From positions 1 to 64,000 of the forward strand of contig JADHZB010000743.1 of the NCBI GenBank assembly GCA_015657535.1: a stretch of DNA of 64,000 bases, given 5' to 3'. The notes under the pieces are model-generated. The model saw only the letters and a program-made list of their open reading frames with translations, had not been told where the DNA came from and searched no databases. Positions within the stretch are counted from its first letter, which is position 1. Every line of letters starts with the position of its first letter. This document shows positions 4,526 through 54,170 of this stretch, piece by piece. The DNA comes from Nephromyces sp. MM_2019. Lineage: Eukaryota > Apicomplexa > Aconoidasida > Nephromycida. The translations under genes and the position numbers were made by a program.

Positions 4526-5087
4526 TGTTGAAAATTTATAGAATCAAGTTTATGCGGGAATGTGTATGGGAATAATCTATTGCTTAATGCTTTTAATAGT
4601 ATACTCAAACATATAGTTTTAAATTAACGATTCAGGTATACATAAATTTAAAGTGATAATGACTAGTATCCAATTTATTCCTCTAGAAATAATAAGTAGT
4701 TTGAAAAGTTTAGAATTTATTAATATAATGTCAAAATTATGATTCAGATAATTTATAAAATAACAGCGATTTGTTTAGAAATAAGCGGTATCTATGTTAC
4801 ACTAGCCCATACCATATAAATATATAAATATTTGGGTAGACGGTTATTTCTATGGATATCATCATCTTCTTTTACATCATTTTGTATCTTATTCAATCTA
4901 TATCTTAATTCGCCTAAAACACCATGTATATATTGTCCTTATTATACCCAAAATAAAATTATGGAAATTGATCATATAAATCAATTCAAACATCATTACC
5001 ATGAATTTCTCAAGCTATAGGAAGAAAAAAATTGAAAATTAAAAAGCGGTATGTGCATCTGCTAAAGGACCAATAATTGTGTTCAGT
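4526..5087. promoter_or_regulatory. Divergent intergenic region, threonine synthase / HNH gene
   Basis: 562 nt separate two divergent start codons and should contain both promoters. The sequence is AT-rich and I recognise no specific motif. A 62-codon open frame at 4832-5020 on the plus strand is not protein-like enough to call. Confidence 0.4.
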
Positions 5088-6701
5088 ATGAATTTTAAAG
5101 ATTTAAGGATTTTTAATAATTTCAACAACCTTTTTTCCCTTTCATATCATTTTTATCAAACATCTACAACAACATCAATATTGAGAAAGTCAGAAATTTT
5201 CGAACGCGTTCCAAATTTCGATGGGAAAGATAAAAAAAACTATCAAGTATCCACTCTTGGACGTCTAATGAATGACAAAGGAAAAATATTGAATGGTCAC
5301 AAGGCTCGAAACGGATATTGTTATGTGTGTATTAACCGTAAACAATATTCTATACATCGACTCGTAGCAGAAACATTTCTTTTCCGTTCCAAGCTAGAAT
5401 TATTGAATAAAAATATTGATAAATTAAGTTACCAGGCGAACCCAACAGCATCGACATTTACATTAGCTAACCAAAAATCAACAGAGCAAGATCGTACGAC
5501 TCAAGTTATTTTTAAAAGCTCTGGGAATGTTGCACACACTACAGCAACATCATCAAACAATGCTGGATTGGCTAACCAGTCCTCTGGAAATAAAATGTTA
5601 GCTCCTATAACAACTGTGGACAGTATCGGAATCACCAAGGCCATGGTAAGAAATATCGAATCTATTTCCTTAATAAACAGCCCGGTTTCTAAAAACTTAT
5701 CAAAAGAGACCCACAAGAACTCAGGAAACTCTGGAAAATCTGACAATTCAATAAAATCTATTGAAAGACTTACAGGCTCAGCAGATTGTAATAAAATCAA
5801 TGAGGAAGTCCCATTGGATAGTACCACAATTCCTATTGCCACAAGAAGCATTGGAATAATTCCCAAGGCATCAGAAAACTCTTTATCAACTTCTACAAGC
5901 ATTGACAACAGTCATCTAGTTTATAGTTCAGAGACACTAGGAAACAATATTTATAAAAACCAGAATTCATCTATATTACAGGTAGACCATATTAATGGTA
6001 TTCGCTCAGATAATCGACTTGTAAATCTACAATGGCTAACTATCAAGGATCATGCAAAAAAGACGGCAGCATCACGCAAGGCCAAACGTGATGAAGATTT
6101 CATTTCCGCGAAAGCGCGACCTTATTTACTAATCCATAGGTCTACATCTATGCCCATATTTTTCAATAAGTTTTATGATTTACTAAAATTTTTAGGTATA
6201 CAATTATCCCCAATGATTTCCAAAAGCCTAAGACGGTACCTTGCTATACAGAAAGAATGGAAATTACTAAAAATAGGTGATTCTAAGTTGCCTGGTGAGC
6301 GATTCAAGCCCATTATTCATACCCGATTATCAAACAATCCAAATACAACTAGAATTAATTCATCATCAAGAGAGAAACATTCAAATTATTTTATTTCAAA
6401 TCTGGGGCGTATCCGTTTTCCTAATGGACGAATCACTACAGGTGTAGCTTCAATTGACGGTTATAGAAGTGTTGGTATTAAAGGTAAAAACTATCTAGTT
6501 CATCGTCTTGTTGCATTAAATTGGCATTCATTACAAGCTAAAAAATACAATTACAATGATACCTTACAAGTAGATCATATCGATGGTGTGAGGCATAATA
6601 ATTGGGCTGATAATTTACAATGGCTAGATATCCAATCTCATGCACGTAAAACTGCCCAACAGAGACAGTGTAGGAAGAAGTCGGATGCTTTAATAAATTA
6701 A
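5088..6701 (+). CDS. Tandem NUMOD4/HNH homing-endonuclease-like protein
   Basis: Intronless frame of 537 residues from ATG 5088; an in-frame GTG at 5079 is a less likely start. It has two NUMOD4-plus-HNH modules. Module 1 starts near residue 38 (EIFERVPNF, then YQVSTLGRLMNDKGKIL), followed by an HNH first half (YSIHRLVAETFL). A Ser/Thr/Asn-rich insert of about 190 residues (roughly 105-295) separates it from its second half, VDHINGIRSDNRLVNLQW. Module 2 (about 435-530) is compact: YFISNLGRI, YLVHRLVALNW, then VDHIDGVRHNNWADNLQW. The catalytic H..DH..N pattern is kept in both. Homologues are DNA nicking or cutting enzymes, usually of phage or mobile introns; here the gene is free-standing between nuclear genes, so self-homing, domestication as a DNA-binding protein or a lateral gain are all possible. 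No intron in a neighbourhood of multi-intron genes supports a late arrival. Confidence 0.85.
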   Translation: MNFKDLRIFNNFNNLFSLSYHFYQTSTTTSILRKSEIFERVPNFDGKDKKNYQVSTLGRLMNDKGKILNGHKARNGYCYVCINRKQYSIHRLVAETFLFRSKLELLNKNIDKLSYQANPTASTFTLANQKSTEQDRTTQVIFKSSGNVAHTTATSSNNAGLANQSSGNKMLAPITTVDSIGITKAMVRNIESISLINSPVSKNLSKETHKNSGNSGKSDNSIKSIERLTGSADCNKINEEVPLDSTTIPIATRSIGIIPKASENSLSTSTSIDNSHLVYSSETLGNNIYKNQNSSILQVDHINGIRSDNRLVNLQWLTIKDHAKKTAASRKAKRDEDFISAKARPYLLIHRSTSMPIFFNKFYDLLKFLGIQLSPMISKSLRRYLAIQKEWKLLKIGDSKLPGERFKPIIHTRLSNNPNTTRINSSSREKHSNYFISNLGRIRFPNGRITTGVASIDGYRSVGIKGKNYLVHRLVALNWHSLQAKKYNYNDTLQVDHIDGVRHNNWADNLQWLDIQSHARKTAQQRQCRKKSDALIN

Positions 6702-23100: not shown

Positions 23101-24030
23101 TGTCTTAAAGGTTATGAAGTTGATGATTCATATAAAGTATATGTAAATCAGCAACTACCTAATAGCTCATGTTTATAGGAGGTAAATTATATGCTATATA
23201 TAAGGAAATAAGGATTATCCAACATGATAGATTTGTTAGTGTATATAGATAATTTAGTTACCAATAGGTTGCTGCAATGTTTCATGTGCATTCCAGCGTG
23301 TTGCCTCAAATATAACTTCAGACCAAATCTTAAACCAAGGAAATTCAGTTGGATTGTTTATATTAAATAAATTTTTTGTGTGGATATTTGAAGGTGTGTG
23401 GCTAGAGTTTGCTGTACGTACATATGACAAACTTAGACCCTCGTTAGATATTGCGGAGAGTTGTGAGATTTGCTCCTTTTCGGTATTCTCTAATATCTTG
23501 TATAGTGTGTTGATATATTCCTTATCGTTGTAATAATAAGCACACTCCAAGTCTATAAATCGTACTGAGAAGTCATCAATTACACGAAATTGCTGACTTG
23601 TTGTAGGTTCAAATTGATTACTTGTTGTTGCCTTAGGTATCTTCCAGCTAAGGTCATCCTTATCCAATTCGAAAAAAGTGTTTGGGTCATATCTGTCTGA
23701 TGAATTATAAGCTGTGTAGCTTGGTGCGTAGCTATCAGTTTGCGGAGCACTGCTAGATGTGTTAGGAATGTTAGGAGGTGTTGTTTTCGTTGTTGATGCT
23801 TTGTAGGGTGCATATGAACTGGACTTGGGTTGAAATTTAGAAATCTTATATCCTTCTTTTAGGTGTGTACCACCAAATGGTTGAAATAAATCAGACAAGC
23901 TCAGTTTCATTAAAGCAGCAATTTGTCTTTTTATAAGTGGAGTTCCATGGACGAGTATAATGGGAGGAAAATTCAAATGTAGCCAAGATAGAAACTCCTT
24001 GGAACCCCCAGATGTTCTATTAGATTCCAT
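11112..24030 (-). CDS. TRAPPC8/Trs85-like TRAPP complex subunit, 21 exons
   Basis: Exons: 24030-23262, 22639-21848, 21443-21360, 21044-20965, 20302-20170, 19998-19898, 19681-19529, 18998-18845, 18563-18457, 18220-18094, 17839-17623, 16874-16484, 16050-15972, 15659-15534, about 15325-14987, about 14517-13667, 13194-12956, 12652-12565, 12401-12152, 11875-11847, 11477-11112. Total 1,824 residues with closed phases; the 15/16 junction and the exon 19 start (12401 or 12404) are less certain. Family evidence along the length: LSLSDLFQPF near the N-terminus, WFKIW, LADYHFMIRDYEKAL, GLFLEQLAFSIPLFD, HSLRCY, a beta-rich C-terminal half, and the end FRWIGQTKYNIENLESGEI. Human TRAPPC8 is about 1,435 residues; the excess is largely low-complexity His/Thr/Asn stretches. 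The protein belongs to TRAPPIII, a Rab1/Ypt1 exchange factor in early secretion and autophagy. Introns reach 740 nt and carry most of the window's CA/GT repeats. Confidence 0.88.
11515..11780 (+). repeat. G/T-rich low-complexity tract in TRAPPC8 intron 20
   Basis: Plus strand is rich in GTGGGTGG-like and GTGTGT runs. In the sense orientation it is CA- and CCCAC-rich and lies upstream of the exon 21 acceptor. It is non-coding in the gene model. Confidence 0.7.
13915..14245 (-). repeat. CA/CAT-type repeats inside a coding exon (His-Thr/Asn runs)
   Basis: Within TRAPPC8 exon 16 the sense strand carries CACACA and CATAAC/CATAAT runs read as alternating His-Thr and His-Asn for about 105 residues (approximately residues 1310-1417). 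The flanking exon sequence is of normal complexity. The frame stays open throughout. Confidence 0.75.
14705..14935 (+). repeat. (CA)n-rich tract in TRAPPC8 intron 15
   Basis: Plus strand is almost pure CA-repeat with interruptions (CACACA, CATACA, AAACACA); the sense strand is therefore GT/TG-rich. It produces spurious Cys-Val open frames on the minus strand. Confidence 0.85.
15381..15490 (+). repeat. 16-bp minisatellite in TRAPPC8 intron 14
   Basis: About seven tandem copies of GTAATTTGATGTGTAT, the outer ones diverged at both ends. It lies between exon 14 (ends 15534) and exon 15 (starts near 15325). Confidence 0.85.
17345..17620 (+). repeat. (CA)n-rich tract in TRAPPC8 intron 11
   Basis: About 275 bp of CA repeats with periodic AAACACA and CACTACACAAATACA variants, directly downstream (in sense) of the exon 11 donor at 17623. 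Sense strand is GTGTGT-rich. Confidence 0.85.
17850..17945 (+). repeat. TA then (GT)n microsatellite in TRAPPC8 intron 10
   Basis: A TA run followed by a nearly perfect GT run up to about 17937. Sense strand is (AC)n followed by (TA)n. Confidence 0.85.
18611..18860 (-). repeat. About 64-bp tandem repeat covering the exon 8 donor and intron 8 of TRAPPC8
   Basis: Units recur at 64-bp spacing; the sequence ACCCATTAC begins at about 18672, 18736 and 18800, with a diverged copy at about 18611. The last 30 nt of exon 8 plus its donor (18845/18844) align with the same unit, so most of this intron consists of copies of the exon-intron boundary. Exon 8 is read normally through the first copy. Confidence 0.8.
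19085..19265 (+). repeat. Degenerate short tandem repeat in TRAPPC8 intron 7
   Basis: Repeats of roughly 25 nt related to AGAGGTGTCAATGTGTGTAT, variably diverged, lying between exons 7 and 8 of the TRAPPC8 gene. Confidence 0.6.
21060..21345 (+). repeat. 72-78-bp tandem repeat in TRAPPC8 intron 3
   Basis: TTATATTCCAAGTTAT recurs at about 21109, 21181 and 21259, flanked by repeated ATAGTGTGTGTATAAA and TTTCATAATAAT blocks. It fills nearly the whole intron between exons 3 and 4. Confidence 0.75.
21545..21800 (+). repeat. (CA)n-rich tract in TRAPPC8 intron 2
   Basis: CACATACA, CACACACAGTATACA and related units recur over about 250 bp immediately downstream (in sense) of the exon 2 donor at 21848. 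Confidence 0.8.
22680..22990 (+). repeat. GT/TA-rich tract in TRAPPC8 intron 1
   Basis: Plus strand shows repeated ATATGTGTATG and GTATATGTGTAG units. It sits just upstream (in sense) of the exon 2 acceptor at 22640. Confidence 0.7.
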
Positions 24031-24479
24031 TGTGGTAATATTCCTTTAATTCATACCTAATAATGCTTAGTCATGAAGATCTTATTTGACGAATTAAATG
24101 TTTTAGATGTGAATAAGTATATTGTATTGTGGGTCTACGTGAGCTGTTTTTATATATATGTGGAGAGTTTTGTACAAATAGAGTACACCTTGATTATCAT
24201 CTAGCAACAATATCTTAGCTGTTTTAATGTTTTAATTTTTTGACCTTGTATATGTATCTCTTCTTAGTTTTGGAAGTTGCATATGTATGTAATTATTTTT
24301 GATGTATTGACAATTCTTAGCTTGTAAAGTTGTTATATTTATTTACATTATTATATTCATATACATAAATGGATATGTATATAGTTATGTGCTTTTAATT
24401 ACTTAGATTTGTTATTTATAGAGATTTGCTTATTGAATCTAGAGTAATAAACTTGTAAAGTTGTAAATGCATAGTTTAA

Positions 24480-28958: not shown

Positions 28959-29309
28959 TCATTGATCACCGTCTCTTTTATTATGATTGATGCTTTTCAT
29001 TGTATTCTTGATTTTCTGAAGCTGCTGTTTTTGCTCAGAAGATAGCAGCTTACGTGTTTCTCTGGTTATACGTTCGCCTATCGTTTCATTTTGTTTCACT
29101 AACTTTTCAGAGTAAGATTTCCATTCATTAAAAAATTTTATGAATTGATCAGTACTACAATCTTTTAGACAGTGTAAACGGAACTCTTCTTTAACGAAGA
29201 TATCTCCTAAATTGCGCATTTGCAGAGGGAGCTTTATCCTATGCAACCGCAAAATATTCCTTGACAAATTTAATGCTTGATTGATCTGAAACTTGTTTAG
29301 TGAAGACAT
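28959..29309 (-). CDS. SDHAF3: Succinate dehydrogenase assembly factor 3 (ACN9 family)
   Basis: Single-exon frame of 116 residues ending in TGA. The LYR-family core is clear: an N-terminal helix with LSRNILRLHRIKLP in place of the LYR motif, then MRNLGDIFVKEEFRLH and FFNEWKSYSEKLVKQ, which is the SDHAF3/ACN9 arrangement. Family members work in the mitochondrial matrix and protect the iron-sulphur subunit SdhB during complex II maturation. Length suits the family; a Lys-rich C-terminal tail follows the core. It is divergent from the MLO gene, with 383 nt between the start codons. Confidence 0.85.
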   Translation of the reverse strand: MSSLNKFQINQALNLSRNILRLHRIKLPLQMRNLGDIFVKEEFRLHCLKDCSTDQFIKFFNEWKSYSEKLVKQNETIGERITRETRKLLSSEQKQQLQKIKNTMKSINHNKRDGDQ

Positions 29310-29692
29310 TATACTTCTAATCAGGTAGATTCAGTAATAATGCCTTCATCTGCAAGAAATTAAAGAATTTAGCTTGAGATTATATCACCTCAATTGATAT
29401 TTTCATGACAGTCAATGTGGAAAGTTTAAATTTGAAAATATTTTTCAATGATCTAAATGAGCATAAAATAATTTGAAATTACATCCTTTAACTCTTATAT
29501 AAAGCCTAGTTTGCAAAGGATTGATATGTTTAATTAGATTGCTTGTTTTAAAATTAAGCTATTAAATAAAGTGAGATACTTATATAGCAGCCTAGTCTGC
29601 TTCAAAAATATAGTGTATCTACAGTTATGTTCTCGAGAAAACTTGAAATACAAATTTTAATCATATATATTAAAAATAAATAAGAATGCAAA
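29310..29692. promoter_or_regulatory. Divergent intergenic region, SDHAF3 / MLO-like
   Basis: 383 nt of AT-rich sequence between two divergent start codons, presumably a shared or back-to-back promoter. No specific motif recognised. Confidence 0.4.
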
Positions 29693-32600
29693 ATGCTGCC
29701 AGTAATTTCATTCATATCGTTGACAGTTAACAATTCACAAGAATGGATTCTGATAATATTATTCTTTATAATAATATTCTTATCATTAGTATTCGATTTA
29801 ACTTTGAGTGGACTTGAGGTAAGAACAATAAGTAATATAAATATAACATATTTTCTAGGATTTTATAGTCGAGTTTAGAAAAGCTAGGTTATAACTCAAT
29901 AATTGGCCTCATCAAGAATGTTTACAAGGAGTTAACTCTTCTGGGTTTTGTTAGCATATCCCTTTTCATGCTCATAAAAAGTAAGTATTAATCAGACATT
30001 GCTCACAATTTGCTATAATGTTTTAGCTGGTGCCGTGTTACAACTAAATGATCGATACTTCGGAGTTTCTCAAACTGAAAAAGCAGCTATGAGTAAAGCT
30101 CACTCAGGTTCTTATTGCTTATTAAAACTCTTATTTGTCAGAAATTAAAATCATCCTAGAAAATTTGCATACAAGCCCGCCAACAAGACTAGTAGAAACT
30201 TTCGAGGTTATAGCTTTTAGTGTATTTGATTTCTCCAGAGATTATAATATATAGGAAATTCATATTCTGGTTTTTATGATTATGGTGATATTGACAGCTC
30301 AAGCGATTATGCTTAGCTACCTAGGAATTACAAGTAATCTTTTCATTATGAAACGATCTTCTACAAAAATTTTTTTCGAAGAAATAATAAAGTATCGAGC
30401 CTTGGATGCCAAATCTGAGGTAAGTTTTGCAGGCTCGCTTCGCTAATTCATTCTCAAATTGCTATTATAGCATGAATTACGTGAAGATATCAAGTACCAA
30501 AGCCGAGATCTCAAACAATCATTAAGGTTTTGGGCATTGAAAAATCGTTTTTATAATCCTTCCTATCCACAAGGTTAATAATTAAATATTGATTGAATTA
30601 AAGATAAAATTTAGGCAAGTCGCCCGACCGAGGCCTATTAAGAATCGAGTATTATATTAAACATGTTTAGAATTTTTTTAGCATGCCCTTTAAGCTTGTA
30701 TTCTCAGAATATCTATCAAATTGCCAAGGTGAATTCCTTTCTGAGTTAGTGGAGATACCTCGCAGTGTAAGAAACTACATAAGGTTATAAAACCAAATCA
30801 ATCTATGCTTTCAAAGGTTTTGATAATGTCAATTATTATCGTTTTACTATTGAGGCCAGCTTTGGGTAATTAGTAACAAAGCTTAAAACTTAAGAAAATA
30901 AACCTGCATAAAGATCTTGAAGGAGTTGAAGTCATAATTTTCATGATTATATCTTCTTTTGCAATTAGTTTTTGCACCCTACTATTGTCAATTTATCTTG
31001 GAACAAGGATGGAAAAACTCATCCCATCTGTTGATGGGACCACGAAACTAATTGGAAGCATAGTAGTAGATGATGAAGTGCTAGATCAGGTCAATTATAA
31101 ATAAATTTACTTCTTTTAATGTGAGATTTTTGCCCAAGGCTATGTCATGTGAAATAGAAGCCAGGTCGGAGTAATGTTTTAACATCTACATTCTAATTCA
31201 ACCATTTAAAGCCCTATAATCCAAAAAAGACATTTACCTTACAAGGTTGAATGTAATAGAACAGAAAACGTAGTTCTTTTCGGGAAACCAAATTTTACGT
31301 TGCGAGTTTTACAACTTCTATTTTTCTTTCATGCTGTATATCTTGCAATTCTCTTAAAGTGCATTAGCACAATGTAAGTTCCCCATACTTTCATGTCTAT
31401 GCTTGATACTGGTGCTTTAGTTCTTATGGTTCCTCTGATATATGGTTAGCAAATTGGTATTGGTCCTACCCACTTACCATATTGCCCCTTTCGTTGAGTT
31501 ATTATTGCTGGACACAGGTAATTTTGATATATTTTACTTGAAGTATTAAAAAAAGAATATAATTTAGATGATAACAAGTTTTTCTTTGCTTTCAAATTTG
31601 GATTTTCTAACATCCGGAGAGAAAATAAGAGTAGTTAGTTAAACAGTTCGCTGCATTACTCTCTTTTTTAAGAGTCTATAGATCGAAGACCAGATTGAAC
31701 TCAAAAGGGTGAAAAGGAACATACAATTTTCCAATGATTTGATGAGAGCTGTAAGAAATACAAGCACTAATAAGCTTTTAAAATTATATCTTAATAGACT
31801 ATGCAACAAGATTTTTCAGAAAGAGAAAAAAAATACTTTTTGGAGAAATATGAGGATTTGGACTTGCTGTCGAAAGCGACCATAGGTAACAATACAAATT
31901 TTAACTTAGAATAATGATTTTGATAAGAATAAAGAGAATATTTTTGAGTATTTTTCCAAAAGTAACTTGCATGTTGAAGACCAAAGTCCTGAAAAGAGGA
32001 TCTCAAAAGAGGTTCAAAAATAATCATCTTGCTCTGAGCCTTCAATTATAATAAAAATCCAATCTAGAATTTGATTGAAATCCTAGTTTCAATGAATTTC
32101 TTCGAGGTCTGAAAAGCCTCTTTAATTAAATAAAACTCATTAAACTAATTTCTATAGAATAAAGGGCTGGAGAATCAAAAGGATTCTAAAAAAGTACTTT
32201 CCCTTTTGAAAACTCATAGGTAGTCTAAAATTACCAAGTAAAATAGCGTTTTGAGTAGTTTTTACTAGCAAAAGTTTGAGCATGAAAGAATTCAAAATTT
32301 TTATGATGCAATTGAGCTTCAGAATTGATAAAAAGGGCTAGTTTATAGTCTTGCTGTTCATATTTTATAAAAATTAGAAATCTTCAGTTTCAACAGAAGA
32401 TGCAATTAAAAAATTGTTTAGAAGTCAAAGCGACTATGAGCAATGTAAAATAGATAAAGAAGAGCTCAAAAGCCTAATGAAGTAACTCAAATTTTATATG
32501 TAAAGAGTACAGATTATATCTTGCATAGTCAATTTTCCAAAGGAGATCTAGATGATATTTTAAAAAGCATAAATGAAAGAGGTAAAAGTAGTAATATCTC

Positions 32601-32734
32601 GAACTGAAACTTATAATATCCAATTTTCAGATGATTTAACTCAGATAGAGCTTGTTGAATGGATGGAATCAGTCCAAAAAAAGTCTTTGATTAACAAGAC
32701 TAATATGCTATTACAGAGTCGATTAAATATTTGA
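29693..32734 (+). CDS. MLO-family membrane protein with EF-hand-like C-terminus, 21 exons
   Basis: Exons: 29693-29818, 29869-29980, 30027-30107, 30142-30206, 30255-30419, 30471-30573, 30615-30648, 30682-30766, 30817-30865, 30914-31089, 31246-31373, 31421-31517, 31568-31630, 31682-31750, 31798-31885, 31935-32011, 32158-32219, 32269-32336, 32388-32481, 32508-32581, 32631-32734; 639 residues, stop TGA, all phases close. MLO likeness in order: hydrophobic N-terminus, SSLEKLGYNSIIGLIKNVYK then ELTLLGF, a helix (HILVFMIMVILTAQAIM), FWALKNRFYNP, paired helices ending LLLSIYLGTRMEKLIP, ENVVLFGKPNFTLRVLQLLF, and WYWSYPLTILPLSLSYY. About seven membrane helices are expected. The tail contains FRIDKKVSTEDAIKKLF, CKIDKEELKSLM and a final DDLTQIELVEWMESV, resembling degenerate EF-hands. 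Plant MLOs are calmodulin-binding calcium channels. Intron 18 (32337-32387) needs a GC donor. Introns are mostly 26-51 nt, unlike every neighbour. Confidence 0.72.
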
Positions 32735-32783: not shown

Positions 32784-34338
32784 CTAACATTTCTTTTCAT
32801 AATAATAATGTGGATTGCATTCAATATAGAAATTAGTTTTTATGTAAATCAAAATTGTCAAACAATTTAGATAATAATGTTTTGTTATATATAGAATTGA
32901 AAAATATATTGAATAATACCTTCTTTGAGAGTACCATAAAAGATCTTCAGTAGCTTGAACTGTCACAAGATCTTGCACAATCTGAAATGAGAAAAGTTGT
33001 GTTTTGGAAAATATTTGTAAATCGAAATATTATAATCATTAGATATTAAAAAGCAGAAATACAAGCAACTTAATTGGCCTTCTCTTAGCTTTTACAATTT
33101 CATAATGCCTTACTTCATTGCATGCACTTATCAAGCCACTCATTTCCATGGGTTGCCCCGAAAGATTGTATTTTAGTCCGCTTGATATTGTGGATTTACA
33201 AGGCTTAGCTGTAGTTTATTTGATTGTAGATGATCTCGAAGTCTCAATTAAAAAAGTAACACATTATTTTTAATTATTTTACCTAATGGTAGCAATCCAC
33301 ATTTATTGTTTACAAAAAATTTGGGGAGTTGTATAGTAACTTTGCCTTTAGGTATAGCAAAGCATAGAGAGTCATAATCAATCAGCATTACCTATAGTGA
33401 AGATGTGTCAAGTGTATGTAAAATAGGTATTCAAATTAAAGTTCTGAAGATGGATTTTTGGAACTAACAAGATTGTTATCAAGAGAATTTTGTTTGAGAA
33501 CTTTGAACAGAAAACCGATATTTCCAATAGAGTGATCAAACCTACCCCCAAGTCCACCTATAAGATTAAAAATAGTAAAGCTTGGTCAAAATTAGATGCA
33601 AATTCTGGATTTTTACGAACACATAATTATTATATTTTCTTGGGGTTTAAGCCTAGATTTTAAAATTTTCCAGCATTTCATTGTGTCCGTGCTATCTTGG
33701 TCATTATGGTATATAATTGGTACATTGATATTTTTATAATATTCAATAACCTACAAGAGAATAAAATGAGTTATTTTTAAATTTATATAGCCTAAAAATA
33801 CACCACTTTTTTCAAGAATTGAAGCTTATATTACCTCATTTTTTATTGAGTCAAGATCTCCGCATATAAGTGTCGGTTTGGTAGTATCTTCATTTGCTTT
33901 AGTCTGGTTTATATTCAATTCATACAAGTGATTTGCAGCTCCATCAGCTATAATTAATGATTTCGCCCTGGAGTAAAATTCAACACAATTTGGTAAGAGA
34001 GGTTGGTTTAATTGTATTACATGAAATGGCTCATGGTTCTTGATATTGGTATCACTTTTATCTTTGTTCAGGATATAATCAAGGAACTCGAAGTTTAAAA
34101 TATTCTCTTTTCCATCCAGAACCTTATCATTCTTATACAAACCAACACCACTTGAGATGTTACTAAATCTTCTCCATGAATAGTTTCTAAAATTAAATCC
34201 CGCTATGAAAGTACTTTTCAGATAAAGGGGAGATAGGTGGAATAATTTCAGTGATGGAAGGCTCATATTGATTACCCTGCTATTCCACGTAATGGTGCTC
34301 AAATATAGAAATAAATGTATTATTAATAAAAGGCCCAT
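32784..34338 (-). CDS. Thiamine pyrophosphokinase, 6 exons
   Basis: Transfers pyrophosphate from ATP to thiamine, making the cofactor that the PDH E1 encoded at 52.4 kb needs. Exons: 34338-33835, 33750-33621, 33557-33469, 33391-33283, 33208-33114, 32981-32784; 374 residues with closed phases. Motifs: IIADGAANHLYEL, LICGDLDSI, NDQDSTDTMKC, GLGGRFDHS, CGLLPLG, SGLKYNLSG and a final VTVQATEDLLWYSQ. It is longer than human TPK1 (243 residues): an N-terminal extension of about 110 residues begins with a hydrophobic stretch (MGLLLIIHLFLYLSTI), possibly a signal or targeting segment, although Met25 is an alternative start. The last about 45 residues after the conserved LLW are Tyr/Ile-rich; a further short intron ending just before the same stop is possible. 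Confidence 0.88.
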
Positions 34339-35129
34339 AGTTTACAAGGAGTGCTTAGTCCTCTTACTTGATAATAAGACTTATCACACCTGTTCTTCGA
34401 TGTTACAGATTTGGTTAGGATAAAATCTAGTTTCATGCATCATAAAAACTTAATAATTTGAATTAATACAAATAACGCTTTTTAATAAACATATCTATAA
34501 TTATCTTCTCAATTTTTGTAGGAGATAATATTTTATTTATAAATTAAATTTATAATGATCTATATTATTTATTATTTCTTTTTAGTTTAGATGCAAATCT
34601 AATTTACTTATCGAGTGTTATTTTGCATTCGTTTCAAATAAAAAAGTCTTAAAAGTTTCAATGTCAAATAATCAATTAAGGTAATTTTAGATACTTAAGA
34701 CGAGCATATAATTTTTATCAAATTCTTATCATCACAAAAAATTTTACTTAAAATAGATGTTGTTTCTACCCTAATAACTGATATTGTTAAAAACTAACAC
34801 ATGGTATCTTGTTTTAAATTTGATCAAACTGTGTGTTTTATAGTATATAACGTTTTATCCTATGTGATGTAATATATTATTGCCTAATTATGAAATCGTG
34901 TAATACTTATTTGAGGATAAGCTATGCAGTTGTAAATTATAATTATGATATACCCTATTTATGCAAGGATAAAGTAAAATTATATTTTGCTGCTGCGAAC
35001 GCATAATTAATGTCATTGTTTATATATACATATGTTAACAAGGGTTTATGATTAGACTCTACGCCAAATCTGGGATGATAAGTTGTATTGTGATTTATCA
35101 TTTTATTTGTTTTTGAGTAGTCAATTTTA
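34339..35129. other. Intergenic region upstream of thiamine pyrophosphokinase
   Basis: 791 nt between the TPK start and the NUS1 stop, both genes on the minus strand. AT-rich; should contain the TPK promoter and NUS1 3' end. No gene seen. Confidence 0.5.
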
Positions 35130-42073: not shown

Positions 42074-43198
42074 ATGAAAGAAAGAAAACGAAAAGCACCA
42101 ACACTTCCTCCCGAACAAACACTATATAACAATGAAAGCAGTCACTTTATTCCCGTGAGTCAAACATAATGTCAATATAAAACTATACACTATAAATAAA
42201 TACACTTACTACAAATAGCAACAATTTGTAATTAAACACTCAATATAAGTTTGACAAGCATATAATTTAGCTTATATGTAGGAACTTACACTATTCAGAC
42301 CCATAAATACATAATAAATTACATATCTATCAAATATATATAAATCACTAATCAAACTGTATAGGAATGGGATCATAATAAGCAAGAAAATTATACACAC
42401 CACAACTTAAATTGGTTTAATGGCTTAAGGGGAATTTGTACAAAATTAGATGATATTTGTGTGAGAATAAATCCTTATTTTCCACATGCTATGAATCAAT
42501 GGGAAAATGACACATCTGATATAGCCACGATTAACAGATTTCTATCCGAAATATCAACCTACAATGGTAAGATTTTTATTTGTTTTAAATTAAAATTTGA
42601 TATTAGTGTTTATAGTCAGTTTATCAATAGGGTAAACTCGATTTGTATATACCGATTTATTCCATAAATATCTAAAAGCATTCTACATCATTATCCTTTG
42701 TTTATAGAAGCTAACCCCAGGCCAATATATTATAGACAACCACACATTATGAATGATCCCTACAATCCTATGTTATCAATAGACAATCAAATGCAAAATT
42801 CAACCTGGCTTTACACGCAACCTATCCCAACACAAAACATATCTACACAACCTATACAATACACATCTATGAACCCAACCAAACAAGATACCCCCGTTTA
42901 TAGTTCAAATATTCCATACAAACCCGATGTAAAGGACTATGAATATCTTTTAGATTTCCCACACAAGAATCAACCAGATTTAAATTCACCCGAAGATTTA
43001 AAAATGGATATACCAGGCGTATATTGGACCAAAAATTCATGGATAGCTTCATGGTATCAAAATAAGAAACGACACTATAAATCGTTCTCAGCTAAAACAC
43101 ATGGATTTTACAAAGCAAAATTCTGGGCTATTAAAGTAAGGTTAATGGAAGAATCAAAACCATCTGTAAATGTTAAGAGTAAATTCAAATTATTATAA
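42074..43198 (+). CDS. ApiAP2-type transcription factor with one C-terminal AP2 domain, 3 exons
   Basis: Exons 42074-42154, 42365-42566, 42708-43198; 257 residues, GT-AG introns, phases close. Exon 1 begins MKERKRKAPTLPPEQ, a basic start that may be a nuclear signal. The middle is Asn/Gln/Pro/Thr-rich and unstructured. The C-terminus (about residues 205-250) is a single AP2 domain: IPGVYWTKNSWIASWYQNKK, then SFSAKTHGFYKAKFWAIKVR, with the conserved GV.W, W.A.W, F...HGF and AK..AI..R pattern of apicomplexan AP2 domains. Such proteins are the main sequence-specific transcription factors of Apicomplexa and relatives. The target motif cannot be read from sequence. It is convergent with ATP synthase beta. 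The domain call is secure; the exon 1 start is the only good ATG upstream. Confidence 0.88.
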
Positions 43199-43821: not shown

Positions 43822-48213
<4,392 letters not shown>

Positions 48214-50212: not shown

Positions 50213-52386
50213 TGTCTTTGGTCGTTGTACGTATTTTCACCTATCAGATTGTATTAGAATAAAGTTTATAATTTTTTGTTCTTCCTCGGAAGAATTGTAT
50301 GGTGAAATTATGATATCTTAACACTACATGTATAAGATGAAACAAAATCTTAAATTTATTTATTTGAATAAGTCCAAAAATGAACTTTTCGCTATTATAG
50401 TTTTCTATTTAGTTCAAAGCTATTAAATCAAAGTTATGTTTGCTGTTCAATTTAAGTTGGATTCGTGCTTATATCTTAAATTGTAAACTTTATGAGAAAT
50501 TGAGGGAGCTTTAGGTGATCAGGTAAAACTTAAAAATAATCTTACACATTTTTTACACTTAATAACTGTTATTTACTCTAAGTTAATGTTAAGCAAAGTG
50601 TATGAGTATATAGTGTTTGTTGAGTCATCTTCATAATAATTCTGGGAAGGTTTAAAGCTAGTGCTTAATAAGAGATAAAGAAAATACGAGGTTTGGATCG
50701 CACTGACAAATAAGATGCCACAGAGAAATCTAATACAAGTCTTTTGAAAAAGTACTCAATTGTGAAATTATGGAGCGTCAGTATCTTACAATTTAAAGTG
50801 AAGCAAATGCTTATGAGTTAGTAAGCATAGGAAGCAGTACACAATGTTTGATAAGCTAGAGAATCACTCTATCAAATTATATTTTTCAAACTAATTTCTA
50901 AATGTTTTATTTATCTGGAGGGATTCCTACTTTCCACTCTGTGGCATATAAAAGGCGATAATGTGAATTTATAGTAATTTGAAAATTATACTAGTAACAA
51001 TAAGAGTTCACCTAATTTAACTATTAGAAATGATTGACAAAAATCTCTCCTAGTCACCACAATTTTGTACCATATTGAATCTAGTTTTTCTACTAGTTTT
51101 TTAAAGTTCTTTTTCTTTTCTCGGAACAAAATTTTGGAACCTTTCTAGTTTTCAAAATATCACGATAATTTCTATTTTATAAACCCGTGACATTCACCGT
51201 CTACTGCATCACTAGATTCGAAAAACATTTTTCCAGTCCATGAGCAAAACGCACAAGTCACCAAGGCTAAGAGTTGCCTCAAATGATGATTTTTAGAACC
51301 ATAAATACCTACTTCATAATCGAATTCTAGTGCATCAATTTCACACCATTAGTGAATACCACAAATATCAACCTTGATAAAATAATAACTAAGAATTTCC
51401 ACGGATTACTGCCTGCTAAATAACAATGATTATTGATTGCTTCTTTCTTTCAAGTATGCTTTAAAATTCTTTGCTGAAGAGATTTTGTTGGAAGCTTATT
51501 TAATTCGTTTCCTATATTTCAACAAAACTGTTGGTTCAATGTAGGTATTGCTTTACTTAAAATTGGTAACAATTTTTTTCCAAAAATTTTATCATAAACA
51601 ATTTTTGCTAAAAAATACTTTCAAAAGCACTTCACACTATGATGATAAGATTTTATTTTTTTTTATTAAAAGAACCAATACTACCACAAAAGTTTCAAAT
51701 ATCAAATTAAATGTTACAAATGATACAAGTAAATTTTTATTGATCATCTTAAAGCGCACGCAACCCTTAACATTTACAAGTTTCATCAACATATATAAAT
51801 AAAACAAGGAATAATGTACAAAAGAATCTATTATTCCAACTATGTAAACTTTGGCATGAATACTTATATTCGCAGTAATTCTGAAACCACGCTCACTAAA
51901 CATTCGACGTGACGCTTTAAAAGGCATTTAAGCTGAACATAATTTAACCTGTTTATACCACATTTGAAATAATAAACAACACATTTGTAGCAGCTTCGGT
52001 ACAAAATGATTCTCAGTTATATAACACATGAACCTAAATGACATTATTTTAGATGTTTAATAAAATCATAACTGATTCGCAAAATCATTATTAATGTTTT
52101 AAAAAGTTTCATACACCCACATTTCGATACAAAATATGCAATGAACTAGACACTCGAGAGTTTATTTTGGACAATTTAACAACACACATAATTTCTTGTT
52201 ACTAAAACCTATAGCCACTAAATCATTTATAGATTAAATTACCATTGTCGAGTTTAAACACACATCGTAGTAACACTTCAGACATCTTCTGACCACTACT
52301 TAACTTTAAACCTCCCTCTTTATAGTTTAGTTTGCGTATACTTACTCACTGATCCGCTTTCAAGTTACTTTGTTCCAATCACAATA
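50213..52386. promoter_or_regulatory. 2.2-kb divergent intergenic region, transporter / PDH E1-alpha
   Basis: AT-rich sequence between divergent start codons; both promoters should be here. An 84-codon and an overlapping 96-codon frame on opposite strands near 51548-51927 have low-information composition and I do not call them. Confidence 0.4.
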
Positions 52387-54170
52387 ATGAATACACTTTA
52401 TTCTTTCTTCCTACAAGGGCTAATTATCTGCTGCTTCCATCCCTACTTTTCTTTCGGATTTCAGTCCAACACACTGAATAACACACCCAAACAGGGAATT
52501 AATCCAGCATTTGCTACATCAACCACACTCCCCAAAACGACCCCAAACATAATCAAGCCTGAAGTAGCAATTCCTAATACACAAGTCGTCTCTACGATAT
52601 CACCACATTCACCTTCAATTCGCGATCGATTGGTAGGGGACAAAGAAGATGTTTCCCAAGAAGTTGCTCAGATGCTTTATGAAGATCTTCTTATAGGTAG
52701 ATATGTAGAAGACATGTGTGCCCAGATGTACTACCGAAGTAAGGTTGCTGGTTTTGTACATCTTTATAGTGGACAAGAGGCCATAGCAACAGGTGTTATC
52801 AAAGCACTCAGAAAGGATGATTATGTTGTAAGCACCTATCGCGATCATGTACACGCAACAAGCAAGGGTGTACCCATCAAAGAAGTTTTAGCTGAATTAT
52901 TTGGGAAAGAAGCGGGGTGCTCAAAGGGTAGAGGTGGATCAATGCATATGTTCAGTAAAGAATATAATTTTGTAGGAGGATTTGCCTACATTGGTGAACA
53001 AATACCGGTAGCTCTAGGTACCGCATTTGCTTCAACTTTCAAGAAAAGTACTCCAGCCATTAATGATAAGTCTTCTGATCAAGTTTCAGTATGCTTCCTT
53101 GGAGATGGTGCTGTTAACATCGGACAATTTTACGAATCACTAAACTTAGCGGCCCTTGCAAAACTCCCTGTGATTTTCGTAATAGAAAATAACAATTGGT
53201 ACGACTCACATAATATTACTACAATATCTTAAGTACACCTGCTTTACAAATTTATTGTATTTTTATTTTAACATTCATTTTGTCTTTACTTCAAAATGCG
53301 ATTTCTGTCAATAGGGCCATTGGTATGGCATCATACCGCTCAACTTCAGTACCGGAACTATACAAAAAGGCTGACGCTTTTGGTATTCCTAGCTTCGAAG
53401 TTGACGGTATGGATGTTTTATCAGTCAGATCAGTTGCACGAAAGGCCATTGATAGAGCCAGAAATGGCCTTGGACCCACTGTTATAGAAGCTTTGACTTA
53501 TCGATTTAGGTGAGGTACATGTTTGACTTTCAATTTTGATATAGTTAAATATAAGTAGTGCTTAAACCTAAGCCTGTGTATTCTTTTACTAATTTTCAAA
53601 ACTATTTCTCCCAATCTAGGGGTCACTCACTTGCAGACCCAGATGAATTAAGAGCCCCACTTGAACGTAAGACATGGCAGGAACGTGATCCTGTACTTAG
53701 TTTTGGAAATTATATGAAGTCAATGGGCTATGCAACTGATGGTTTGCTTAAACATACACAAACCAAGGCTAGTTTAGAATTCAATATTTTTTCATAAATC
53801 TAAATTCAATCCTCACTTTTTATCAGATTCGTGATATGGTTAAAAATGCTGCGACTTTTGCAGAAACTTGCCCTGATCCTCCGATTGAGGAACTGGGGGA
53901 ATATATATTTAGCACTCATTATACTCCTAAGGAGGAAAATTTCTCAGATGAACAGCTTAATGCATATGCTCGTTCATTAGCCAATGAATTGGATGAACAG
54001 GTTTGTCTTTATGGAATCGTAACCATATTTCTAAAACTATTCAAGCACTATATTTCGATTATAAAATTTAACTTTATAATCTACGCAATCAGGCATTGAA
54101 GAAATCTGGGGAGCGAAATTTCCATAAACCGGTTGAGTTTCAAACCAATCCTTTGTTAGTGATCGATTAA
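52387..54170 (+). CDS. Plastid-type pyruvate dehydrogenase E1 component subunit alpha, 5 exons
   Basis: Exons 52387-53198, 53315-53509, 53620-53767, 53827-54000, 54093-54170; 468 residues, phases close. The N-terminus has a hydrophobic signal-peptide-like stretch ([20 protein letters not shown]) followed by a Thr/Ser/Asn-rich transit-like region to about residue 80, the bipartite pattern of proteins sent to a secondary plastid. The TPP motif runs from [20 protein letters not shown] to the following NNN. Phosphorylation-loop region [15 protein letters not shown] and the substrate loop GGSMHMF are present. E1-alpha decarboxylates pyruvate for acetyl-CoA used in plastid fatty-acid synthesis; the partner is E1-beta, not in this window. 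Intron 3 (53768-53826) begins with GC rather than GT. Apicoplast location is inferred. Confidence 0.94.

What the first reader, a model, noticed from the sequence alone, without database searches (positions are those of the whole stretch)
29693..32734. MLO-family gene in a plastid-bearing alveolate
A 21-exon model with perfectly closing phases gives a seven-helix protein with several MLO landmarks in the right order (ELTLLGF; FWALKNRFYNP; LGTRMEKLIP; ENVVLFGKPN; SYPLTILPLSLSYY). MLO proteins are best known from land plants and green algae and reported in few other protists. Presence beside an ApiAP2 gene and an apicoplast-type PDH is unexpected and bears on calcium signalling and on the origin of the family.
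Basis: partly seen in the sequence, partly recalled or inferred. Interest (0 to 1): 0.8.

Follow-up and report, generated by a model that had tools for sequence, protein, structure and literature searches.

The report
MLO-like membrane protein in apicomplexans
A distant relative of the plant MLO membrane proteins, some of which are reported to pass calcium, occurs in Toxoplasma and Eimeria relatives and in several copies in this genome, with a calcium-sensor-like tail attached, so it may be a calcium channel of these parasites.

Summary
A profile from T. gondii and Cyclospora proteins alone recovers it: 834 against at most 63 in 20 shuffles, 19 of 23 introns identical. Best relative: a T. gondii 'EF hand domain-containing protein'; others are in Besnoitia, Cyclospora, Eimeria and at three or more further loci of this genome. 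The MLO kinship holds for the family: Pfam Mlo hits 8 of 8 proteins at E <= 0.02; this one is below the cut-off (15.2 of 24 bits), 3 of 7 relatives are above. The family profile aligns with two plant MLOs from helix 1 to 6 (E 5.5e-11). Best reading: a separate apicomplexan MLO-like branch, probably a Ca2+-permeable membrane protein with a built-in Ca2+ sensor; channel activity is inferred. MLO-like proteins in unicellular eukaryotes were reported before; I saw no paper on this EF-tailed form.

The parts
29693..32734 (+). MLO-like/EF-tail gene, 24 exons, 637 aa (ATG 29693, TGA 32732-32734). Exons: 29693-29818, 29869-29980, 30027-30107, 30160-30206, 30255-30333, 30382-30419, 30471-30573, 30620-30648, 30695-30766, 30817-30865, 30914-31089, 31139-31164, 31212-31373, 31421-31517, 31568-31630, 31682-31750, 31798-31885, 31935-32011, 32068-32106, 32158-32219, 32269-32336, 32388-32481, 32529-32581, 32631-32734
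29693..30333 (+). Exons 1-5: TM1-TM3, the part with the strongest MLO signal (Pfam Mlo profile 5-70 at residues 13-78)
30382..31517 (+). Exons 6-14: second cytosolic loop and TM4-TM7, with LVFSEYLSNC (aligned with the plant FDFHK stretch) and LFGKP (aligned with plant WF-[NH]-RP)
31568..32734 (+). Exons 15-24: cytosolic tail collinear with the EF-hand region of T. gondii P0001; the EF loop is decayed here (SDYEQCKIDKEE)
32337..32387 (+). Intron 21, GC-AG type, 51 nt; supported by alignment to P0001 and by the spliced alignment that excluded this gene

Best explanation
A nuclear gene, probably of an apicomplexan or close relative, encodes a polytopic membrane protein homologous to the MLO family, with an EF-hand-type tail at its C-terminus. 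It belongs to a family shared with coccidians (T. gondii, Besnoitia, Cyclospora, Eimeria) and present at four or more loci here. Most likely mechanism (inferred): the seven-helix core is a Ca2+-permeable channel, as reported for several Arabidopsis MLOs expressed in animal cells, and the tail does in cis what calmodulin bound to the tail does in plant MLOs, so that local Ca2+ gates it. In the window copy the Ca2+-coordinating loop residues are lost, so it would be a Ca2+-insensitive or subunit-type paralog, while C435 keeps an intact EF loop.
For: Shown: gene model and relative. Coccidian family. Pfam Mlo in 8 of 8 proteins, over the cut-off in P0004, P0006, P0007 and in paralog model C487 (27.5 bits). 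Family HMM (8 sequences) against cotton MLO 44.5 bits, best of 1000 shuffles 5.3. hhalign of 11 family sequences against cotton plus recalled barley MLO: 306 columns, E 5.5e-11 (no shuffles run on this one); C-half alone (6 sequences) E 3.4e-4 against a best of 0.043 in 60 shuffles. EF hands in P0001 E 1.8e-15 and C435 E 1.7e-7. Paralogs. Inferred: channel activity, from passages of PMC13360292 on MLO1, MLO2 and MLO7 and on calmodulin binding by plant MLO tails. PMC9436416 lists TGGT1_216620 as 'Ca2+ influx channel with EF hands'; whether P0001 is that gene is untested.
Against: The window protein alone is below Pfam's cut-off; the own genome searched exon by exon with Pfam Mlo and with cotton MLO gave no match. 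With three sequences the C-half comparison was no better than shuffles (E 0.025; best of 60 shuffles 0.02). HMMER sees only TM1-TM3 in each protein. Structure predictions were poor (pLDDT 52 and 50) and the fold search gave 0 matches at E <= 0.001, so the shared fold is untested. No data on transport or localisation. The window copy's EF loop is decayed and no EF-hand family reaches E <= 1 in it, which weakens Ca2+ gating for this copy. PMC13360292 itself says that MLO channel activity may not matter in epidermal cells.
Confidence: 0.6

Rival explanations
1. An MLO homolog that is not a channel: a seven-helix Ca2+-sensing scaffold whose EF tail reads Ca2+ and whose core binds partners.
For: PMC13360292 says that plant MLOs might not conduct Ca2+ in epidermal cells and gives the C-terminus a role in relocalisation. 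The homology evidence fits this reading equally.
Against: Channel activity of several MLOs in animal cells is reported in the same paper; a T. gondii EF-hand Ca2+ influx protein is on record, though its identity with P0001 is untested.
Confidence: 0.3
2. The MLO resemblance is convergent: an apicomplexan seven-helix family with an EF tail, similar to MLO only in TM1-TM3 by composition.
For: HMMER finds only TM1-TM3; the window copy is under the cut-off; the first C-half test failed; no good structure.
Against: Block shuffles that keep local composition reach only E 0.035 (best of 40) against 5.4e-8; the C-half becomes E 3.4e-4 against 0.043 (best of 60) with paralogs added; among 24,736 Pfam models Mlo is the only one hit by 8 of 8 members at E <= 1.
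Confidence: 0.08
3. The window copy is a decaying paralog, the working copies being C435, C487 or C1008. (This can be true together with the other readings.)
For: Its EF loop has lost coordinating residues; it has a shorter N-terminus than P0001.
Against: 637-codon frame with no stop across 24 exons and uniform 46-56 nt introns; 33-35% identity to T. gondii over most of its length, 40% over the 420 core columns.
Confidence: 0.12

Closest known systems
T. gondii EF hand domain-containing protein P0001 (UniRef, strain COUG) and its coccidian relatives
   Same: Same order: helix pair with YKELT-LGF, LND-Y-GVS-TE, SPPT-L-E-FEEIH, LLLRPALDL-G-E, FGKP, then a C-tail (EF hands in P0001); 31-35% identity, 96% of the query covered.
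   Different: The window copy lacks about 60 N-terminal residues and has a decayed EF loop. Five of the seven database models (P0002, P0004, P0005, P0006, P0007) lack the TM6-TM7 stretch, probably through annotation.
   Same: Collinear profile match TM1-TM6; helices in the same order in low-confidence models.
   Different: First outside loop short and without cysteine in the window protein, P0001, P0003 and the three paralog models; EF-hand-type tail in cis; 17% identity in the profile alignment. A calmodulin-binding peptide was not looked for.
TGGT1_216620, 'Ca2+ influx channel with EF hands' (Chang et al. 2019, cited in PMC9436416)
   Same: T. gondii protein with EF hands, listed as a Ca2+ influx channel (passages).
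   Different: Not shown to be the same gene as P0001; the Chang paper is not held.

Membership tests
MLO (PF03094) | Pfam Mlo score over the curated cut-off (24 bits) | tested here: not met
   Window protein 15.2 bits, E 0.007. Relatives: 3 of 7 over it. Paralog models: C487 27.5 bits over it, C435 21.2 and C1008 15.3 under it; the C487 and C1008 models scanned were partial, 394 and 350 aa.
MLO (PF03094) | Collinear homology over the membrane core | tested here: met
   For the family of 11 sequences, not for the window protein alone: hhalign 306 columns, E 5.5e-11; C-half of 6 sequences E 3.4e-4 against 0.043 best of 60 shuffles. The earlier C-half test with 3 sequences failed.
MLO (PF03094) | Seven transmembrane helices, N-terminus outside, C-tail inside | tested here: inconclusive
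   Hydropathy gives TM1-TM6 in the window protein and TM1, TM3-TM7 in P0001; low-confidence AlphaFold models of P0001 and cotton MLO show helices in the same order. Orientation not tested.
MLO (PF03094) | Four conserved extracellular cysteines (plant MLOs, PMC10780410 passage) | tested here: not met
   No cysteine in the first outside loop (residues 87-117) of the window protein, nor in the matching stretch of P0001, P0003, C435, C487 and C1008.
MLO (PF03094) | Calmodulin-binding peptide in the C-tail | not tested
   Not searched for; the tail is instead collinear with the EF-hand region of P0001.
MLO (PF03094) | Ca2+ channel activity | not testable with these tools
   Needs expression and recording.
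EF-hand proteins | EF-hand Pfam match and canonical loop (D1, D3, D/N5, E12) | tested here: not met
   Window copy: no EF-hand family at E <= 1 (E 4.5 for EF-hand_7 with the earlier 665-aa model), loop SDYEQCKIDKEE. Met in P0001 (E 1.8e-15) and C435 (E 1.7e-7); loop residues also kept in P0003 and P0006.
Coccidian MLO-like/EF-hand family (P0001 group) | Full-length similarity and same order of parts | tested here: met
   E 9.9e-84, 96% coverage with the 665-aa model; alignment of the final model; spliced profile 834 against 63. Strict one-to-one orthology is open.
TGGT1_216620 | P0001 is the product of this gene | not testable with these tools
   No accession mapping; the paper is not held.

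The most novel reading that the evidence does not exclude
Coccidian apicomplexans use an MLO-family channel with a built-in EF-hand sensor as a plasma-membrane Ca2+ entry channel (P0001 being the reported 'Ca2+ influx channel with EF hands', TGGT1_216620); plants recruit calmodulin to do what apicomplexans fused in cis, and this organism has expanded the family into Ca2+-sensing and Ca2+-blind subunits.
Probability: 0.35. Interest if true: 0.88.

Novelty: new variant of a known kind. Interest (0 to 1): 0.7.

Why it matters
PMC8216714 says that the molecular nature of the T. gondii plasma-membrane Ca2+ entry channels had remained elusive, and itself offers TgTRPPL-2 beside a still unnamed nifedipine-sensitive channel (passages). 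PMC9436416 says that Ca2+ release channels are missing from apicomplexan genomes or diverged beyond recognition (passage). An MLO homolog with an EF-hand tail is a concrete candidate; the ion-channel review PMC9799330 mentions neither MLO nor 216620. For MLO itself, plant papers place its origin in algae or photosynthetic unicells or call it an ancient eukaryotic protein found in other unicellular eukaryotes; an apicomplexan branch with a fused sensor would sharpen that question.

Tried and rejected
Pfam Mlo and cotton MLO against the genome exon by exon: no match; short exons can explain this, so it was not taken as absence. First gene models of 655-666 aa were rejected because alignment to P0001 showed stretches to be intronic. 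The 84-nt GT-AG alternative to intron 21 was rejected because the GC-AG form restores a helix that aligns with P0001. The first C-half comparison with MLO was not significant and is reported. Structures of P0001 and P0008 were too poor to compare; fold search: 0 of 414 matches at E <= 0.001. No MLO in the PDB by sequence at E <= 1. T. gondii TgEFP1 was rejected: 149 aa, no membrane helices (passages of PMC9139715). Organism by rRNA: the Rfam request did not complete 11 times, the window holds no Rfam match at the gathering score, and an exact 18-base rRNA motif had no match in the genome. Ten paper searches listed no paper that I recognised as being on MLO in apicomplexans; only listings and 'find' passages were seen, no paper was read whole. 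Two key papers are not held (Kusch 2016; Chang 2019), so 'not in print' is not claimed. The tree leaves the place of the window protein among paralogs open.

Full report
1. The gene. At 29693-32734 (+) the sequence supports a 24-exon gene of 637 codons. All 23 introns of the model measure 46-56 nt (mean 49), 22 GT-AG and one GC-AG. The main test used a profile made only from T. gondii P0001 and Cyclospora P0003: spliced alignment to the window scored 834, against a maximum of 63 (mean 44) for 20 shuffles and 55 for the opposite strand. It gave 24 exons and 19 of my 23 introns exactly; of the other four, three differ at one boundary and one at both. The script's preference for introns of 44-58 nt had been set after seeing this gene.

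2. Relatives. A search of 5.8 billion proteins with an earlier 665-aa version returned one protein at E <= 0.01: a T. gondii 'EF hand domain-containing protein' of 716 aa, E 9.9e-84, 31% identity over 96%. A search with the alignment of both added Besnoitia. With residues 75-480 of the T. gondii protein as query, 8 proteins came back at E <= 1: T. gondii itself, Besnoitia, Cyclospora, three Eimeria species, one unnamed, and, at E 0.65, a Gossypium MLO-like protein. In each search only about 8000 candidates sharing most words were scored, so absence from the lists means little.

3. MLO membership. Pfam Mlo matched 8 of 8 apicomplexan proteins (worst E 0.018), best in the TM1-TM2 stretch of each; 3 of 7 relatives exceed the cut-off (27.8, 34.1, 29.5 bits), the window protein does not (15.2). 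Of three paralog models, C487 exceeds it (27.5 bits, best stretch at profile 145-184, TM3), C435 (21.2) and C1008 (15.3) do not; C487 and C1008 were scanned as partial models. Profile-profile comparison with cotton plus barley gave E 5.4e-8 over TM1-TM3 (40 block shuffles: best 0.035; reversed: 0.5). TM4-TM7 of three sequences alone gave no signal (0.025 against 0.02 in the best of 60 shuffles). With the three paralogs added, the core of 11 sequences aligned from TM1 to TM6 (306 columns, E 5.5e-11; no shuffle was run on this comparison), and the C-half alone, now 6 sequences, gave E 3.4e-4 against 0.043 for the best of 60 shuffles. I conclude homology to MLO, in a separate branch. In the tree the two plant sequences are split from the 11 others by a long, fully supported branch, which says nothing about origin. 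Against full membership: this copy fails the Pfam cut-off, and the first outside loop has no cysteine in 6 of 6 sequences looked at.

4. The tail. P0001 has EF-hand pairs (best E 1.8e-15, two stretches) and C435 has EF hands (E 1.7e-7). The window protein has none by Pfam at E <= 1, but its tail aligns with that of P0001. At one EF loop P0001 reads DADQDNRISEEE, C435 DADKDDKVTQEE, P0003 DTDGNQRISLDE, P0006 DTDGDRQISLEE, and the window copy SDYEQCKIDKEE (five tails aligned): the coordinating residues at positions 1, 3 and 5 are lost, position 12 is kept. In C487 and C1008 the loops, read by eye, also look decayed.

5. Paralogs. Searching the own genome (48.3 Mb, 1127 contigs) with P0001 gave 6 matches at four places: C435, C487, C1008 and the window contig C399. 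Spliced alignment with a profile that included the window protein scored 486, 251 and 523 for C435, C487 and C1008, against 49, 47 and 58 for one shuffle each; the shuffles were run with a slightly shorter maximum intron (75 instead of 90 nt). The C435 model reaches the tail, the C487 and C1008 models with longer introns allowed. Counts are lower bounds: the C435 query did not ring at the window gene. In the tree C435 and C487 pair (98/96); the order of the window copy, C1008, that pair and the coccidian group is unresolved.

6. How it may work. Shown: homology to MLO, conserved membrane core, EF-type tail in relatives, decay of a loop in this copy. Taken from literature passages: several Arabidopsis MLOs show Ca2+ channel activity in animal cells, and plant MLO tails bind calmodulin (PMC13360292); the same paper warns that the activity may not matter in vivo. 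Inferred: the apicomplexan protein is a Ca2+-permeable channel whose own tail senses Ca2+. A T. gondii 'Ca2+ influx channel with EF hands', TGGT1_216620, is listed in PMC9436416 on the authority of Chang et al. 2019. I recall that paper as reporting plasma-membrane location and a defective response to extracellular Ca2+ after gene removal, but I saw only its citation. PMC9139715 cites it for 68 EF-hand proteins, of which eight have transmembrane domains. P0001 could be one of those eight; that it is TGGT1_216620 is a guess.

7. Organism. Not identified. Its ATP synthase beta (43825-45483, -) has 6tmh as best PDB match, which I recall as T. gondii; the named relatives of the MLO-like protein, other than cotton, are coccidian. 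An apicomplexan or near relative is likely.

Noticed in passing
window 5043-6698 (+): A 552-codon open frame with HNH_3 (E 2.1e-11) and NUMOD4 (E 5.8e-11) domains, to my knowledge of homing-endonuclease or phage type and unexpected in a nuclear contig of this kind.
   Followed up: no
window 28959-29330 (-): Divergent neighbour upstream of the MLO-like gene: LYR-motif protein (Complex1_LYR_2, E 8.9e-12), by my reading like SDH assembly factor 3.
   Followed up: partly
window 33829-34341 (-): Thiamin pyrophosphokinase catalytic domain (E 6.6e-08) downstream of the gene.
   Followed up: no
window 42668-43195 (+), 43825-45483 (-), 52258-53229 (+), 23257-24045 (-): AP2 domain (E 1.8e-10), ATP synthase beta (E 2.1e-68), dehydrogenase E1 (E 3.5e-41) and Trs85 (E 1.3e-07); 10 ORFs were scanned, 4 of them without a match at E <= 0.01.
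   Followed up: partly
P0002, P0004, P0005, P0006, P0007 (database entries): Five of the seven public models of this family lack the stretch that holds TM6-TM7 in P0001, P0003 and the window protein, breaking off after the motif P-I-D-[DE]: probably annotation errors that hide the family.
   Followed up: no
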